Made by a program: the position numbers and the translations under genes. From positions 1 through 40,336 of the forward strand of contig CAIMWV010000012.1 of assembly GCA_903845295.1 (NCBI GenBank): a stretch of DNA of 40,336 nt, in the 5' to 3' direction. Each line of letters opens with the position of its first letter. The first letter of the stretch is position 1. Source of the DNA: Candidatus Staskawiczbacteria bacterium. Its GTDB lineage: Bacteria > Patescibacteriota > Minisyncoccia > Minisyncoccales > Staskawiczbacteraceae. Below, piece after piece: positions 53 through 23,202 of the stretch. Below the pieces are notes generated by a model. The model saw nothing but the letters and a program-made list of their open reading frames with translations. It was not told the origin of the DNA and searched no databases.

Positions 53-82
53 AAGCGGAGGAGGTGGTGTGGGACTAGAACC
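53..82 (-). pseudogene. Degenerate second copy of the tRNA-Ser 3' end
   Basis: Reverse strand ggttctagtcccacaccacctcctccgc versus tRNA ggttcgagtcccac-----ctcctccgc. Confidence 0.7.
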
Positions 83-208
83 CGTCGCTTGCCTTGCCGC
101 CCTCATTTCATTCGGGCTAGCTCTTCGGTTCCGGCTCGCTCCTTAAAAACCTCTCGGTTTTTAATATTTTCCTACACGGGAGGAAAATTCTTTCCTCCCG
201 ACCCCTCC
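83..208 (-). mobile_element. Small palindrome-rich element, copy E2 (same family as 20741-20904)
   Basis: Reverse strand starts ggaggggtcgggaggaa, contains cctcccgt-taggaaa-attaaaaaccgag-ggttttt-aaggagcgagccgg, ends aaggcaagcgacg; matches E1 at both ends and through most of the 5' half. Confidence 0.75.
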
Positions 209-210
209 AT

Positions 211-270
211 TTGGGTTCTCGTCTCACCTCTTTAATAATTTTAGCCAAATACATTTGGCTAAAATTATTA
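211..270. repeat. Perfect 18-bp-arm inverted repeat (233-270) whose left side extends into an inverted degenerate copy of the tRNA-Ser T-arm
   Basis: taataattttagccaaat-ac-atttggctaaaattatta; left flank gggttctcgtctcacctcttt resembles tRNA gggttcgagtcccacctcc. Confidence 0.75.
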
Positions 271-273
271 ATG

Positions 274-357
274 CGGAGGAGGTGGGACTCGAACCCACGA
301 GACCTGTTAAGGTCACAGCTTTCCAAGCTGTTGCAATGGCCACTATGCGACTCCTCC
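274..357 (-). tRNA. tRNA-Ser(GGA)
   Basis: Reverse strand GGAGGAG...CTTGGAAAG anticodon loop (GGA), long variable arm, T-arm GTGGGTTCGAGTCCCAC, acceptor CTCCTCC + G + CA. Confidence 0.95.
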
Positions 358-3185: not shown

Positions 3186-3665
3186 TTACTTTGTTATTGA
3201 AAGAACTGCCTCGTGGATTTTCCGGGCCAGCTCCCTGTAGTATCCTTCGACCTGATTAAGGTCGGCGATAAAACAAGGATGGTAGATGAATATCGTGCCC
3301 CTTGCTTTGAGCATTGCATTAACTCCAACTTCTTTTTCCTCCGCAGTGCGGAAATCAGTTCGGTAAATAATCGCTGTGCCGGCTGAGGTAATTGCAATGC
3401 CGTATTCCACACATGTTCCGCTGTCGGCATCAGCGCCATCGGCGCTCCCGACAAAGATGTTTTCAGAACTTTGGCACGCCTGTCTGCAGCTTTCAACCAC
3501 GCCCGCCACGTCGAAACGGTCTCCGTGAAAAAACTGAAGCGCTTCCACCTGTGGAAGAATGACTGCGTGCCCCAGCTCTCTCAGATACTTTGCCAGAAAA
3601 AGATTGTGCAACCTCTGTCCGGCATTAAACAACCCGCCTGCCAGGTAAATCTTTAATTTTTTCAT
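3186..3665 (-). CDS. Nucleoside 2-deoxyribosyltransferase-like protein
   Basis: MKKLKIYLAGGLFNAGQRLHN...; aaggag SD upstream of the ATG at 3665. Confidence 0.65.
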   Translation of the reverse strand: MKKLKIYLAGGLFNAGQRLHNLFLAKYLRELGHAVILPQVEALQFFHGDRFDVAGVVESCRQACQSSENIFVGSADGADADSGTCVEYGIAITSAGTAIIYRTDFRTAEEKEVGVNAMLKARGTIFIYHPCFIADLNQVEGYYRELARKIHEAVLSITK

Positions 3666-18732: not shown

Positions 18733-20730
18733 ATGGCAAAGTTTCCTAAATTCTCTCAGTGGAAACAACTTTTTAAAGTATTAAAAAAAACTGAAAGAAT
18801 ATTTTTTTTAGTTCTTATTGTTTTGGCTGTTTTGAGTGCAACATACCTTGCAATTGATTTTTATATAAACAATACAAAATTGACTCCTGCTTACAGCGGA
18901 ACATATACAGAGGGGGTTGTCGGCCAGCCAAGATTTATAAATCCTATTTACGGAGAAACAAATGATGTTGACAGAACGTTGATTGACCTAATTTATTCCG
19001 GCCTGATGACTTACGACAAAGACGGAAAAATAGTGAACGATCTGACAAAAAACTATCAGATTTCAGGCGACGGTAAAACTTACACATTTCAATTGAAAGA
19101 TAATCTCTATTGGCAGGACGGAATACCGCTGACAGCCGATGATGTTATTTACACAATAAAAACAATTCAAAACTCAGATTATAAAAGTCCCTTAAGGGCG
19201 AATTGGATAGATGTCGAAATAAAAAAACTGTCTGACAAATCATTCACTCTGTCTCTTAACGCGCCCTATAACTCTTTTTTGGAAAACTGCACATTAAAAA
19301 TAATCCCCCAGCACATCTGGAAAAATATTTTGCCGGAAAGTTTTGCCTTATCTCCTTATAATCTCCAGCCAATCGGATCGGGCCCCTACACTCTTTCCAA
19401 TATGCAGGAAACCAATAATAGTTTTATAAAAAGCCTCATGCTGGCGGTCAACCATAAATATTACGGCAAATTGCCTTATATATCCGAAATTTATTTCAAA
19501 TTTTTCGGCAACAAAGACGACCTGATAAATGCTGCCAACCAAAAAACAATCGATGGATTCGATATCTCGGCATTACAGGACAATGAAGCCTCGGTAGAAA
19601 AGCAGGTGCGACAAGGTTGGACTACAAACGAAAAATTTGAAGTTTATTCTTTTTCCCTCCCAAGATATTTTGCCGTATTTTTCAACACCGACTCATCTAA
19701 AATTTTATCTGATACCGGTATAACGCAGGCTCTCAATTATTCAGTCAACAAGCAGGAGCTTTTATCTAAGATAGAAGATTCCTTCAAAGAAAAAATTTCT
19801 GTTGTCAATTCTCCGGTTCTGCCTGACTATTTTAACTATTCAGCCCCCACGGTAAGCTACAATTTTAATGTAGACCAAGCAAACAAACTTTTAGATAAAT
19901 CGGGATTTGTGGACTCAGGCAACGGGACCCGGGCGAAAGCAAACAACAAGAAGCCCGCCTTTCAATTTAAAAATTACCTGTCTATAGGATCAAAAGGAAA
20001 CGATGTTGTAGAACTCCAAGGATGTTTATCCAGATTAGACAACAGTTTTAAAACTCTTTTAGAGGGAGAGGCCAGCGGAAAATACGGGACAGGGACCGGT
20101 GATGCAGTTACTGCGTTCCAAAAGAAATATTTGCCTGATGTGCCAAGCACCGGCGAGGTTGGATCAGGTACCAGAAAAGAACTTAATGCATTGTGCCTCG
20201 CCCCACAAAATACTTCTGTACCACTGCAGTTCACTTTAACTACGATAAACCAGCCCCAATTGGTCCAAACAGCCAATCTTTTGAAAGATTATTGGCAGAA
20301 AGTCGGAGCGTCAGTCCAAATAAAAACAGTAGAACTTTCAGAGTTGAAAGATATTATTAAGAACAGAGATTATGATGCCCTGCTTTACGGCGAGGCCTTT
20401 GGAAGCTTGCCGGATTTATATCCATTTTGGTATTCTGAACAAATAAATGACCCGGGATTAAATCTTTCAGAATATCAGAACAAAAAAGCTGACCAGTTAC
20501 TGAAAGACGCCAGAGAATCTTTAGACGACCCTACCAAGTCTCAAAAATATGAAAGTTTGCAAGACATAATACTTACAGACGCCCCTGCCCTATTTTTGTA
20601 TAATCCTGATTATCTCTATTGGGTTTCTGAAAAAGTAAATGGGATCGACACAACAAAAATAGTTGATCCGGCAAAAAGATTCGAAAATATTCAAAATTGG
20701 TATGTCCAAACCCACAGAGTTTGGAAGTAA
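18733..20730 (+). CDS. ABC transporter substrate-binding protein (family 5, OppA-like) with embedded peptidoglycan-binding-like domain
   Basis: SBP_bac_5-like body; internal FKNYLSIGSKGNDVVELQGCLSRL...GTGDAVTAFQKKYLPDVPSTGEVGSGTRKELNALC. Confidence 0.9.
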   Translation: MAKFPKFSQWKQLFKVLKKTERIFFLVLIVLAVLSATYLAIDFYINNTKLTPAYSGTYTEGVVGQPRFINPIYGETNDVDRTLIDLIYSGLMTYDKDGKIVNDLTKNYQISGDGKTYTFQLKDNLYWQDGIPLTADDVIYTIKTIQNSDYKSPLRANWIDVEIKKLSDKSFTLSLNAPYNSFLENCTLKIIPQHIWKNILPESFALSPYNLQPIGSGPYTLSNMQETNNSFIKSLMLAVNHKYYGKLPYISEIYFKFFGNKDDLINAANQKTIDGFDISALQDNEASVEKQVRQGWTTNEKFEVYSFSLPRYFAVFFNTDSSKILSDTGITQALNYSVNKQELLSKIEDSFKEKISVVNSPVLPDYFNYSAPTVSYNFNVDQANKLLDKSGFVDSGNGTRAKANNKKPAFQFKNYLSIGSKGNDVVELQGCLSRLDNSFKTLLEGEASGKYGTGTGDAVTAFQKKYLPDVPSTGEVGSGTRKELNALCLAPQNTSVPLQFTLTTINQPQLVQTANLLKDYWQKVGASVQIKTVELSELKDIIKNRDYDALLYGEAFGSLPDLYPFWYSEQINDPGLNLSEYQNKKADQLLKDARESLDDPTKSQKYESLQDIILTDAPALFLYNPDYLYWVSEKVNGIDTTKIVDPAKRFENIQNWYVQTHRVWK

Positions 20731-20740
20731 CAATTTTATA

Positions 20741-20904
20741 GGAGGGGTCGGGAGGAAGGATTCCTCCCGTATAGGAAATTATTCAAAACCGAGGGTTTTG
20801 AAGGAGTGAGCCGGTAGCCTGAAAGAGCGCGCCGAGCGAAGGGTCGCGAGATTTATCTGCGAAGCGGAAAATCCCGACCTAGCGAGGCGAAAAGGCGAAC
20901 GACG
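20741..20904 (+). mobile_element. Small palindrome-rich element, copy E1
   Basis: Shares both ends and much of the 5' half with 83-208 (reverse strand); hairpins cgggaggaa-gga-ttcctcccg, caaaacc-ga-gggttttg, and nested hairpin C. Confidence 0.75.
20834..20885 (+). repeat. Nested hairpin element C, copy 1
   Basis: gagcgaagggtcgcgagatttatctgcgaagcggaaaatcccgacctagcga; inverted near-identical copy at 23139-23191. Confidence 0.85.
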
Positions 20905-20940
20905 AATTGGTACGTGCAAACCCATAGAGTCTGGAAATAA
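20905..20940 (+). repeat. Duplicated, synonymously diverged 3' end of the SBP gene
   Basis: AAT TGG TAC GTG CAA ACC CAT AGA GTC TGG AAA TAA = NWYVQTHRVWK*, identical peptide to 20695-20730. Confidence 0.9.
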
Positions 20941-21140: not shown

Positions 21141-22958
21141 GTGCAAAAAAATATGATGATACAAAAACCCCTAGCCACTGCTAGGAAACCCTTCGGGACC
21201 CAAAGAGTTCCTCCTCAAGGTAAACAAAGTCCTGCGCCGGCGAGAAGTTGGCATGAGGCAAATCCTGTGCCAAAAAAAGTTTGGCGGCAAGATAACAGCT
21301 TAAAAATAATTCCTCTCGGAGGATGCGAAGAGGTCGGAAGAAATATGACCTGTTTTGAATATGGACAAGATATTGTAATCCTAGATATGGGATTGCAGTT
21401 TCCCGAAGAAGATATGCCGGGAATTGATTATGTAATTCCAAATGTTGAATATTTGAAAGGAAAAGAAAAAAATATCCGCGGGGTTATATTTTCCCACGGC
21501 CACTTAGACCATATCGGAGCTGCGCCAATTTTGCTCAACCAGCTGGGAAACCCGCAAATAATCGGTAGGCCCTTAACCTTGGAAATGGTAAAGCACCGGG
21601 TTGAAGACACATATCACGGAGCTTCAAAAAAATTAAAAACAGTTTATGTAAAAGATATTCACGAAAAAATGAGCTTGGGGGCTTTTACGTTAAGCTTCTT
21701 CCCGATCGACCACAGCGTTATGGATGCAATGGGAATTATTTTAGAAACTCCTGTGGCAACAGTTTTGCATCCTGGAGACTGGACGATTGAAAAAAGCCCG
21801 GCCAGCGGAAAAGCTATAGATTATTCTCATTTGGCCCGATTAAAAAGGCCGACCATTTTAATGTTGGAATCGTTGGGAGCTACGAACTCCGAAGAACAGG
21901 TTACAGAAGAAAAAATGTTGAAAAATCTGTATATGTTGATAACAAAAGCTCCCGGCAGAACCATTATCACCACTTTTTCTTCGCAGATCCAGAGAATAAG
22001 ACAAATTTTGGAATTCGCCGCGCAAAACAATAAAAAAGTTGCTCTCGATGGTTTTTCAATGAAATTAAATATTGAGCTTGCTACAAAGTTAGGTTATATA
22101 AAAATTCCTAAAGGAGTTATAATCACAACCGACAAGGCTCATGGTTATCCTGATAATAAAGTTATTATAATTTGCACCGGAGGACAGGGAGAAGAAATGG
22201 CTGCTCTTTCAAGAATTGTTGCAGGAAACCATCGCTTTATTAAAATCAAAAAAGAAGACACCGTTATTTTTTCTTCATCTGTAATACCGGGCAACGAACG
22301 CACAGTCCAGCGGGTGAAAGACAACCTTTACCGCCAATCTGACAATGTTTATCACTCAGACATTATTGATGTGCACATTTCGGGACACAGCAACATAGAG
22401 GGCATAAAACAAATGCTAAAAGAAATTAGGCCGGATTATTTCATCCCTGTTTATGCCAACCATTATTTCCTGAAAGAAGCGGCCAAAATTGCCCAAGGAA
22501 TAGGATTTAGAAAGGACAAAATATTTGTACCGGATAACGGATCTATCATAAAATTCACCAATCGCGAAGCCGGAATATTAAAAGAAAAAGCGCCGACAAG
22601 TTATGTTTTTGTCGACGGCTTAGGCGTAGGAGATGTTGGAGAAATTGTTTTGAGAGACCGCCAAATGCTGGCTGAAGACGGGATGTTTGTGATTGTGGCC
22701 GTGATAGACAAGCAAACCGGCAGGGTAAAAGGAAGCCCGGATATTATCTCGCGCGGATTCGTTTATTTGAGAGAATCAAAAGATCTGCTCAGCCAAACAC
22801 GCAAAAAAGTAATTGAGATTGTAGACAAATCAGCCGGCCATGGAGGCCCTGTGAACTGGACATATGTGAAAGATGAATTAAGAAACAAAATCGGCGACTT
22901 CTTGAACACTAAAACCTCTAGGCGTCCTATGATTCTGCCTGTCGTGATAGAAGTTTAA
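21141..22958 (+). CDS. rnj: Ribonuclease J
   Basis: 605 aa; LGGCEEVGRNM, FSHGHLDHIGAAP, HVSGHSN-like HISGHSNIEGIK. Confidence 0.95.
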   Translation: MQKNMMIQKPLATARKPFGTQRVPPQGKQSPAPARSWHEANPVPKKVWRQDNSLKIIPLGGCEEVGRNMTCFEYGQDIVILDMGLQFPEEDMPGIDYVIPNVEYLKGKEKNIRGVIFSHGHLDHIGAAPILLNQLGNPQIIGRPLTLEMVKHRVEDTYHGASKKLKTVYVKDIHEKMSLGAFTLSFFPIDHSVMDAMGIILETPVATVLHPGDWTIEKSPASGKAIDYSHLARLKRPTILMLESLGATNSEEQVTEEKMLKNLYMLITKAPGRTIITTFSSQIQRIRQILEFAAQNNKKVALDGFSMKLNIELATKLGYIKIPKGVIITTDKAHGYPDNKVIIICTGGQGEEMAALSRIVAGNHRFIKIKKEDTVIFSSSVIPGNERTVQRVKDNLYRQSDNVYHSDIIDVHISGHSNIEGIKQMLKEIRPDYFIPVYANHYFLKEAAKIAQGIGFRKDKIFVPDNGSIIKFTNREAGILKEKAPTSYVFVDGLGVGDVGEIVLRDRQMLAEDGMFVIVAVIDKQTGRVKGSPDIISRGFVYLRESKDLLSQTRKKVIEIVDKSAGHGGPVNWTYVKDELRNKIGDFLNTKTSRRPMILPVVIEV

Positions 22959-23010: not shown

Positions 23011-23037
23011 ATACTTCCAGTTGTCATTGAAGTATAG
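23011..23037 (+). repeat. Duplicated, synonymously diverged 3' end of the RNase J gene
   Basis: ATA CTT CCA GTT GTC ATT GAA GTA TAG = ILPVVIEV*, identical peptide to 22932-22958. Confidence 0.9.
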
Positions 23038-23056: not shown

Positions 23057-23202
23057 AAGCGACGGATAAGGTGTTCAGCGTAAATCAGACCCTCAATGTA
23101 TGAAATATATCTGGGTCTGACTTCCGAAGCAATCTTATTCGCTAGGTCGGGATTTTCCGCTTCGCGGATAAATCTCGCGACCCTTTCGCTCACACGACCG
23201 TG
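23057..23202 (+). mobile_element. Palindrome-rich element, copy B2, ending in the trpS GTG start, with nested hairpin C
   Basis: See B1; internal hairpin cagaccc...gggtctg. Confidence 0.7.
23139..23191 (-). repeat. Nested hairpin element C, copy 2
   Basis: Reverse complement gagcgaaagggtcgcgagatttatccgcgaagcggaaaatcccgacctagcga; one mismatch and one indel versus copy 1. Confidence 0.85.

What the first reader, a model, noticed from the sequence alone, without database searches (positions are those of the whole stretch)
20695..20940. SBP gene carries two 3' ends: element E1 separates synonymous copies of the last 12 codons
Copy 1 (20695-20730) AAT TGG TAT GTC CAA ACC CAC AGA GTT TGG AAG TAA and copy 2 (20905-20940) AAT TGG TAC GTG CAA ACC CAT AGA GTC TGG AAA TAA encode the same NWYVQTHRVWK*. 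The five differences are all synonymous third-position changes. The 164-bp element 20741-20904 sits between them and its end abuts copy 2 exactly. Random decay of an unused copy would not be synonymous only. Inference: the element integrates in gene 3' ends and carries or captures a tail from a diverged homologue, restoring the gene and leaving the native tail downstream, much as tRNA-targeting integrative elements do but at miniature scale.
Basis: partly seen in the sequence, partly recalled or inferred. Interest (0 to 1): 0.9.

Follow-up and report, generated by a model that had tools for sequence, protein, structure and literature searches.

The report
Tiny mobile elements restoring gene ends
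In this tiny-genome bacterium a gene-free, roughly 170-base DNA element sits at the end of a gene, supplies its own working copy of that gene end and leaves the original end stranded behind it; relatives of the element do the same at many other conserved genes across a large group of bacteria, which looks like an undescribed class of mobile DNA.

Summary
Both copies encode NWYVQTHRVWK* with five third-position differences (P about 5e-5 for random change). The sequence between them, E1, belongs to a mobile family. A covariance model finds 85 copies in 22 of 36 genomes of its family and matches in 69 of 286 genomes sampled from its class (Patescibacteria; named hits are mostly Ca. Staskawiczbacteria). 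In 45 of 78 copies examined, the end of the upstream gene or tRNA is repeated right after the core (1% expected). In 44 of 78, the bases just before the core are complementary to the upstream end; in the window copy 1 is a hairpin and copy 2 is not. So copy 1 comes with the element. Two different units sit in tandem at one site. No dedicated recombinase, transposase or reverse transcriptase among six tested families tracks the elements, so the enzyme is unknown. It works like tail-restoring integrative elements, but it is gene-free, hairpin-armed and diverse in targets.

The parts
18733..20730 (+). Target gene: SBP_bac_5 solute-binding protein; its functional 3' end is copy 1
   Evidence: Pfam PF00496 E 3.2e-53; orthologues in 57 of 58 relatives
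20695..20730 (+). Copy 1 of the tail (NWYVQTHRVWK*): element-side copy, 5' arm and loop of the hairpin
   Evidence: DNA hairpin z -3.75 against z 0.11 for copy 2
20731..20735 (+). CAATT, 3' end of the arm that pairs with AATTG at 20695-20699
   Evidence: Fold; CAATTTGCA at the same place in G011, G012 and G018 elements, absent after the stop in uninterrupted SBP genes
20739..20811 (+). Conserved E1 scaffold: GGGGTC, hairpin H1 (GGGAGGA..TCCTCCC), TATAGGAAATTA, hairpin H2 (TTCAAAACC GAG GGTTTTGAA), GGAG
   Evidence: CM R1 match, 91 bits, E 9.5e-23; H1/H2 covary, 98% of cells paired, 12 of 18 pairs with compensatory change, 0/500 shuffles
20839..20885 (+). Nested hairpin module GTCGCGAGATTT..AAATCCCGAC, a repeat of its own in this genome
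   Evidence: 98% inverted copy at 23139-23185; copies on contigs C15, C32 and C7
20890..20904 (+). Right end of the element, ..GGCGAACGACG, abutting copy 2; most copies end GAGCGAC or similar
20905..20940 (+). Copy 2 of the tail: native end left downstream, not hairpin-forming
273..357 (-). Second target in the window: tRNA-Ser(GGA)
   Evidence: ARAGORN and Rfam
213..230 (-). Complement of the tRNA-Ser T-arm, just 5' of the scaffold
134..210 (-). Second E1 scaffold copy in the window
   Evidence: CM R1, 90.3 bits, E 1.4e-22
55..83 (-). Downstream copy of the tRNA-Ser 3' end (GGGTTCTAGTCCCACACCACCTCCTCCGC)

Best explanation
E1 is one copy of a gene-free mobile cassette family. Each cassette has a left arm that is a version of the end of its target gene, folded as a hairpin on its own inverted copy, followed by a conserved scaffold of two covarying hairpins and a GAGCGAC-type right end. 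It lodges at the start of the matching gene end, so that the host gene now ends with the cassette's arm and the native end stays downstream as a direct repeat. Shown: anatomy, recurrence, element-borne tail at uvrC, presence of the same tail in different genera, tandem accretion. Inferred: (i) the target is found by likeness or base-pairing between arm and gene end, because target sites show no common motif by eye; (ii) the hairpin arm acts as the attachment site, recognised by shape rather than sequence, as integron attC sites are; (iii) the recombination protein is host-encoded or supplied in trans; (iv) conserved gene ends are used because there the arm can restore function.
For: Family: 85 CM matches in 22 of 36 genomes and matches in 69 of 286 genomes across the class. 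Gene-end repeat in 45/78 and arm complementarity in 44/78 against 1% by mismatched pairs; complementarity to the downstream copy in only 14/78, so the arm pairs with the upstream copy. Scaffold hairpins covary. uvrC: 25 uninterrupted tails of copy-2 type; three element-bearing genomes in genera g2 and g8 share a tail 81-89% identical to each other and 33-56% to their own copy 2. Copy 1 and copy 2 differ as two functional orthologous ends: SBP G000 5 and G011 7 differences, RNase J 8, FWVTEKVRK* gene 5, all silent; four longer pairs also show an amino-acid deficit, P at most 0.0008. FWV-gene elements of G008 (g1) and G018 (g8) share even the non-coding part of the arm. Arm hairpins: 26 of 33 with z below -2, median z -5.3. 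Two different cassettes in tandem at an S9-like (rpsI) end in L212, and unit arrays at tRNA-Arg and tRNA-Glu in L210/L211. Target choice (conserved gene and tRNA 3' ends, rarely 5' ends, 12-54 bp repeats) parallels streptococcal ICEs (PMC4701971).
Against: No enzyme tested tracks the elements: G000 has a single tyrosine recombinase and no Y1, RT, serine recombinase, IS110 or TnpB match. Copies at different targets in one genome can have almost the same scaffold (G018 SBP and FWV; G012; G054), so arms and scaffolds do not always travel together. In the freshest insertions the two ends are identical (66 bp in L195, 58 in L216, 51 in L074), as a simple target duplication would give. No circular form or excision was seen. 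At least nine copies before start codons do not fit the gene-end pattern.
Confidence: 0.55

Rival explanations
1. Target-site duplication: the scaffold inserts by a transposition or retrotransposition-like reaction with a long, variable stagger, copying the host's own gene end; the two ends start identical and diverge afterwards.
For: Exact repeats of 35-66 bp in L195, L216, L074, L087 and L104. The nearest scaffold is in the same genome for 24 of 78 copies (6.4 expected), often at another target. G054 carries near-identical scaffolds behind tRNA-His, -Arg and -Glu, each with the matching tRNA end.
Against: uvrC copy 1 is not a copy of the host's own end. Copy 2 should decay without regard to codons, but SBP (G000, G011), RNase J and FWV pairs differ only silently. 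Reverse transcriptases are absent from G000, G012 and G028, and Y1 transposases from G000 and G018.
Confidence: 0.2
2. No dedicated mobility today: elements spread between species at the same locus by ordinary homologous recombination of imported DNA, and scaffolds are homogenised within a genome by gene conversion; only the first insertion at each locus needed a special event.
For: No recombinase family tracks the elements. Scaffold left and right halves both correlate with genome and with target, as recombining copies would. The same loci are hit in different genera.
Against: The right junction lies at the start of the gene end in unrelated loci and genera, where random crossovers would scatter. 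No import tract is visible upstream of the SBP tail, although relatives are too distant to exclude one. Two different cassettes in tandem at one site (L212) are more easily given by site-specific entry.
Confidence: 0.2
3. A regulatory or stabilising 3' or 5' RNA structure (terminator, leader) that duplicated together with gene ends, not a mobile element.
For: Folded scaffold with compensatory changes; a weak resemblance to Rfam Clostridiales-2 RNA, E 0.032, far below its cut-off; several copies directly before start codons.
Against: Sporadic presence at each locus (3 of 28 uvrC tails read, 3 of 30 fetched SBP loci), different targets in different genomes, element-borne tails shared between genera, and tandem accretion.
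Confidence: 0.05

Closest known systems
ICEs and IMEs integrated in 3' (or 5') ends of tRNA and housekeeping genes by tyrosine integrases (e.g. rpsI, rplL, rpmG, guaA, tRNA in streptococci; PMC4701971, PMC5357655)
   Same: Gene end restored by an element-borne copy, native end left as a direct repeat of tens of bp, choice of conserved gene ends including rpsI and tRNA, rare 5' ends.
   Different: These encode integrases and many other genes, with integrases grouped by target; here there are no genes, well under 300 bp, one shared scaffold at many unrelated targets, and a hairpin arm.
Integron gene cassettes and attC sites (PMC2727003)
   Same: Small units in tandem; a hairpin with mismatches at intervals whose sequence is not conserved; recognition by structure is a candidate mechanism.
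   Different: No integron integrase or attI found, no cassette gene, R/L boxes not tested; targets are diverse chromosomal gene ends rather than one attI.
IS200/IS605 derivatives and REP/RAYT elements (from my own knowledge)
   Same: Hairpin-rich non-coding units; short complementary segments next to hairpins that read the flank.
   Different: Those use short target motifs without gene-end repeats; Y1 transposases do not track the elements.
SCC elements at the rlmH 3' end (from my own knowledge)
   Same: Integration at a protein-gene 3' end, restoring it, with tandem accretion.
   Different: Large, carry serine recombinases, one target; serine recombinases are absent from G000, G012, G018 and G028.

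Membership tests
ICE/IME-type tail-restoring integrative element | Element-borne copy of the target gene end upstream, native end as direct repeat downstream | tested here: met
ICE/IME-type tail-restoring integrative element | Own integrase gene inside the element | tested here: not met
   The space between the repeats is too short for an integrase gene in the copies inspected; in the window it is 174 bp
Tyrosine-recombinase element acting in trans | A tyrosine recombinase beyond the single one per genome (presumably Xer) in element-bearing genomes | tested here: not met
   One PF00589 match each in G000, G002, G006, G011 and G012; G018, G026 and G028 were not in that search
Integron cassette (attC) | Folded single-stranded attachment hairpin | tested here: inconclusive
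   Arm hairpin strong; use in recombination not testable here
Integron cassette (attC) | IntI integrase and attI platform | tested here: not met
   G000 and G012 have a single tyrosine recombinase each; no fixed attI-like target among the sites read
IS200/IS605 or REP/RAYT | Y1 transposase in the genome or lineage | tested here: not met
   Absent in G000, G018, G008, G006, G014, G022, G033 and G034, all of which have elements
IS110 with bridge RNA | DEDD transposase PF01548 | tested here: not met
   0 of 36 genomes
TnpB / omega-RNA guided element | TnpB-like protein (PF07282) | tested here: not met
   No match over cut-off in 36 genomes
Group II intron or other retroelement | Reverse transcriptase available | tested here: not met
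   No PF00078 match in G000, G012 or G028 (16 elements)
SCC-like (large serine recombinase) | Serine recombinase | tested here: not met
   None in G000, G012, G018, G028, G030, G014 or G058
MITE | Fixed terminal inverted repeats and a target duplication of fixed length | tested here: not met
   Left arm varies with the target; repeats run from about 20 to 95 bp

The most novel reading that the evidence does not exclude
A programmable class of gene-free mobile DNA: a shared structured scaffold carries an exchangeable hairpin arm that both finds the gene end (by likeness or base-pairing across the insertion point) and replaces it, so one machinery serves dozens of unrelated targets in Patescibacteria.
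Probability: 0.3. Interest if true: 0.95.

Novelty: new variant of a known kind. Interest (0 to 1): 0.85.

Why it matters
These elements rewrite the ends of highly conserved genes (an SBP, uvrC, and by their tails apparently rplK, rpsI, pgk, nusG) and of tRNA genes in about a quarter of the sampled genomes of a large, mostly uncultured bacterial class with small genomes. Annotated C-termini there may be element-derived. If the hairpin arm directs insertion, it would be a compact way to aim an insertion at a chosen gene end without disabling the gene.

Tried and rejected
Chance or assembly artefact: rejected, same anatomy in many independent assemblies. Known RNA family: only a sub-threshold match. 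Mobiliser by co-occurrence: tyrosine recombinase, Y1, RT, IS110, serine recombinase and TnpB do not track. Carrier phages: no exact core-pattern match in viral contigs. Import tract in the SBP gene: none visible, relatives too distant. Copying of the arm afresh from the host at insertion: unlikely for L104 and L087, where the ends are identical but the arm has mismatches. Plain random decay of copy 2: rejected for most pairs. Purely target-linked or purely genome-linked scaffolds: both signals are present. Papers: searches found no description of such elements in Patescibacteria; most subscription papers are not held and terms were limited.

Full report
Observation. Window 20695-20730 and 20905-20940 encode the same twelve codons, NWYVQTHRVWK*, with five silent third-position differences (P about 5e-5 for random change). 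Among 27 window genes only this gene and the RNase J gene show such a repeat of their last ten residues within 350 bp downstream: 10/10 and 9/10, against at most 6/10 in 1,080 shuffles. The window is a 40-kb contig of a 779-kb genome; named public relatives bearing the core are mostly Candidatus Staskawiczbacteria.

The element. E1 is not unique. A DNA search found it in 14 of 38 relatives, a covariance model built from 18 copies found 85 matches in 22 of 36 genomes of the family and matches in 69 of 286 genomes across the class. The scaffold has two hairpins with strong covariation: 98% of cells paired, 12 of 18 pairs with changes on both sides, none of 500 shuffles as high. Its fixed parts are GGGGTC before the first hairpin, (G)TGTAGGAAA between the two, and GGAG...GAGCGAC at the right end. 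Length and inner modules vary, including nested hairpins such as 20839-20885.

Gene ends. Copies sit behind tRNA genes (in most of these the native sequence resumes within the T-loop, GGTTC/GATTCC), behind protein genes and, in a few cases, at gene starts. In 45 of 78 copies the end of the upstream gene is repeated right after the core; mismatched pairs exceed the same threshold in 1%. In 44 of 78 the roughly 30 bases before the core are complementary to the upstream gene end, so the upstream end folds on itself; complementarity to the downstream copy is seen in only 14. In this window copy 1 plus CAATT folds with z -3.75 while copy 2 has z 0.11; the uvrC tail of G012 has z -9.4 against -0.7 for its copy 2. 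For 33 protein-gene cases the median z of the upstream arm is -5.3 (mononucleotide shuffles).

Where copy 1 comes from. The clearest test is uvrC. Of 28 tails read, 25 are uninterrupted and end in ..YHKKLRKK.. or near variants. The other three (G012 of genus g2; G026 and G028 of g8) end SYHRFLRSKKTMGRNT*, SYHRFLRSKKTMGLNT* and SYHKLLRSKNVMGRNA*, followed at once by the scaffold, with a native-type end downstream. Their copy-1 sequences are 29-32 of 36 bases alike, but only 12-20 of 36 like their own copy 2. The tail therefore follows the element. At the FWVTEKVRK* gene, elements in G008 and G018 (different genera) share the arm including its non-coding part. At SBP, four genomes of three genera carry the element, each with CAATT right after the stop, which none of the uninterrupted SBP genes read has. 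In G018 the downstream SBP copy still contains the overlapping ATGGAAATAG that in uninterrupted relatives appears to start the next gene, so it is the native end there. The silent-only divergence of copies 1 and 2 in SBP (G000, G011), RNase J and FWV, and the amino-acid deficit in the longer pairs, fit two ends that each stayed functional until they were brought together.

How it moves. Tandem arrays support repeated entry at one site: in L212 two different cassettes stand in line at the S9-like (rpsI) end, and in G054 whole units repeat behind tRNA-Arg and tRNA-Glu. Target sites show no common motif by eye; what they share is the match between arm and gene end. I take as most likely that the hairpin arm is the attachment site and that likeness or pairing with the target guides entry, with a protein that is host-encoded or comes from elsewhere. 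This is inference. No tested protein family tracks the elements: tyrosine recombinases beyond a single one per genome (22 genomes only), Y1 transposases, reverse transcriptases, IS110, serine recombinases, TnpB.

What argues for other readings. Some insertions look fresh, with identical ends: 66 bp in L195, 58 in L216, 51 in L074, 38 in L104, 35 in L087. Scaffolds cluster partly by genome (24 of 78 nearest neighbours in the same genome, 6.4 expected) and partly by target (32, 13.4 expected), and both halves of the scaffold show both signals. So either new targets are acquired with duplication of the host's own end, or scaffolds are exchanged between copies by gene conversion. Spread by ordinary homologous recombination at orthologous loci also remains possible. 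In the fresh cases L104 and L087 the arm already differs from the gene end at 2-3 positions, so it was probably not freshly copied from that end.

Comparison. Function and placement resemble ICEs and IMEs at gene ends: in streptococci about half of tyrosine-integrase elements lie in 3' ends of tRNA or conserved genes such as rpsI and rplL, some in 5' ends, with 12-54 bp repeats (PMC4701971). The hairpin with interrupted stem and unconserved sequence recalls integron attC sites, which are recognised by structure (PMC2727003). It is not a member of either: no integrase gene, no integron platform.

Names of targets other than SBP, UvrC and RNase J (which have Pfam or search support) are read from tail sequences by my own knowledge: rplK, rpsI, pgk, nusG, uvrA, dnaX. 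The FWVTEKVRK* protein has no Pfam match.

Noticed in passing
window 22932-22958 and 23011-23037: RNase J 3' end (ILPVVIEV*) is encoded twice with eight silent third-position differences; between them lies a different, about 50-bp hairpin stretch (CCCCGTTAAAT..GAGCGAAGCGAG..ATTTAACGGGG). The other relatives' RNase J tails read are single; G004 has a similar but decayed stretch.
   Followed up: partly
window 55-357, minus strand: A second E1 copy stands behind tRNA-Ser(GGA) with a downstream copy of the tRNA 3' end and an inverted T-arm copy before the core.
   Followed up: yes
L130 (G000 contig C32), about 1110-1330: Behind a tRNA a different core, built on the GTCGCGAGATTT..AAATCCCGAC module and lacking the E1 scaffold, is also followed by a repeat of the tRNA 3' end (TTCGAATCCTGCTGGGGGCACA): a second core type with the same behaviour.
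   Followed up: partly
L070, L076, L090, L096, L098, L103, L122, L123, L138: A sub-class with H1 loop CTTCGG or ACTCGG sits directly before start codons (SecY-, L32-, NusB-, GreA-, NusA-like proteins by eye), preceded by a conserved AT-rich stretch ending ACAACTGGAA or AAATCTGGAA; no gene-end repeat is seen.
   Followed up: no
L182, L201: Copies in antisense at the start of a dnaX-like gene: the arm restores the N-terminus instead of a C-terminus.
   Followed up: partly
L136 (G034 contig C10): A permuted scaffold in which the strands of H1 enclose H2.
   Followed up: no
G009 SBP locus, L003 about 3448-3500: An element-free SBP gene whose tail resembles copy 1 of the window, including a strong hairpin and the same protein end; possibly a donor lineage or a site that lost the element.
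   Followed up: no
G007, G017, G023, G027 and others: Many serine recombinases (often 500-600 aa) per small genome, up to seven, unrelated in occurrence to E1.
   Followed up: no
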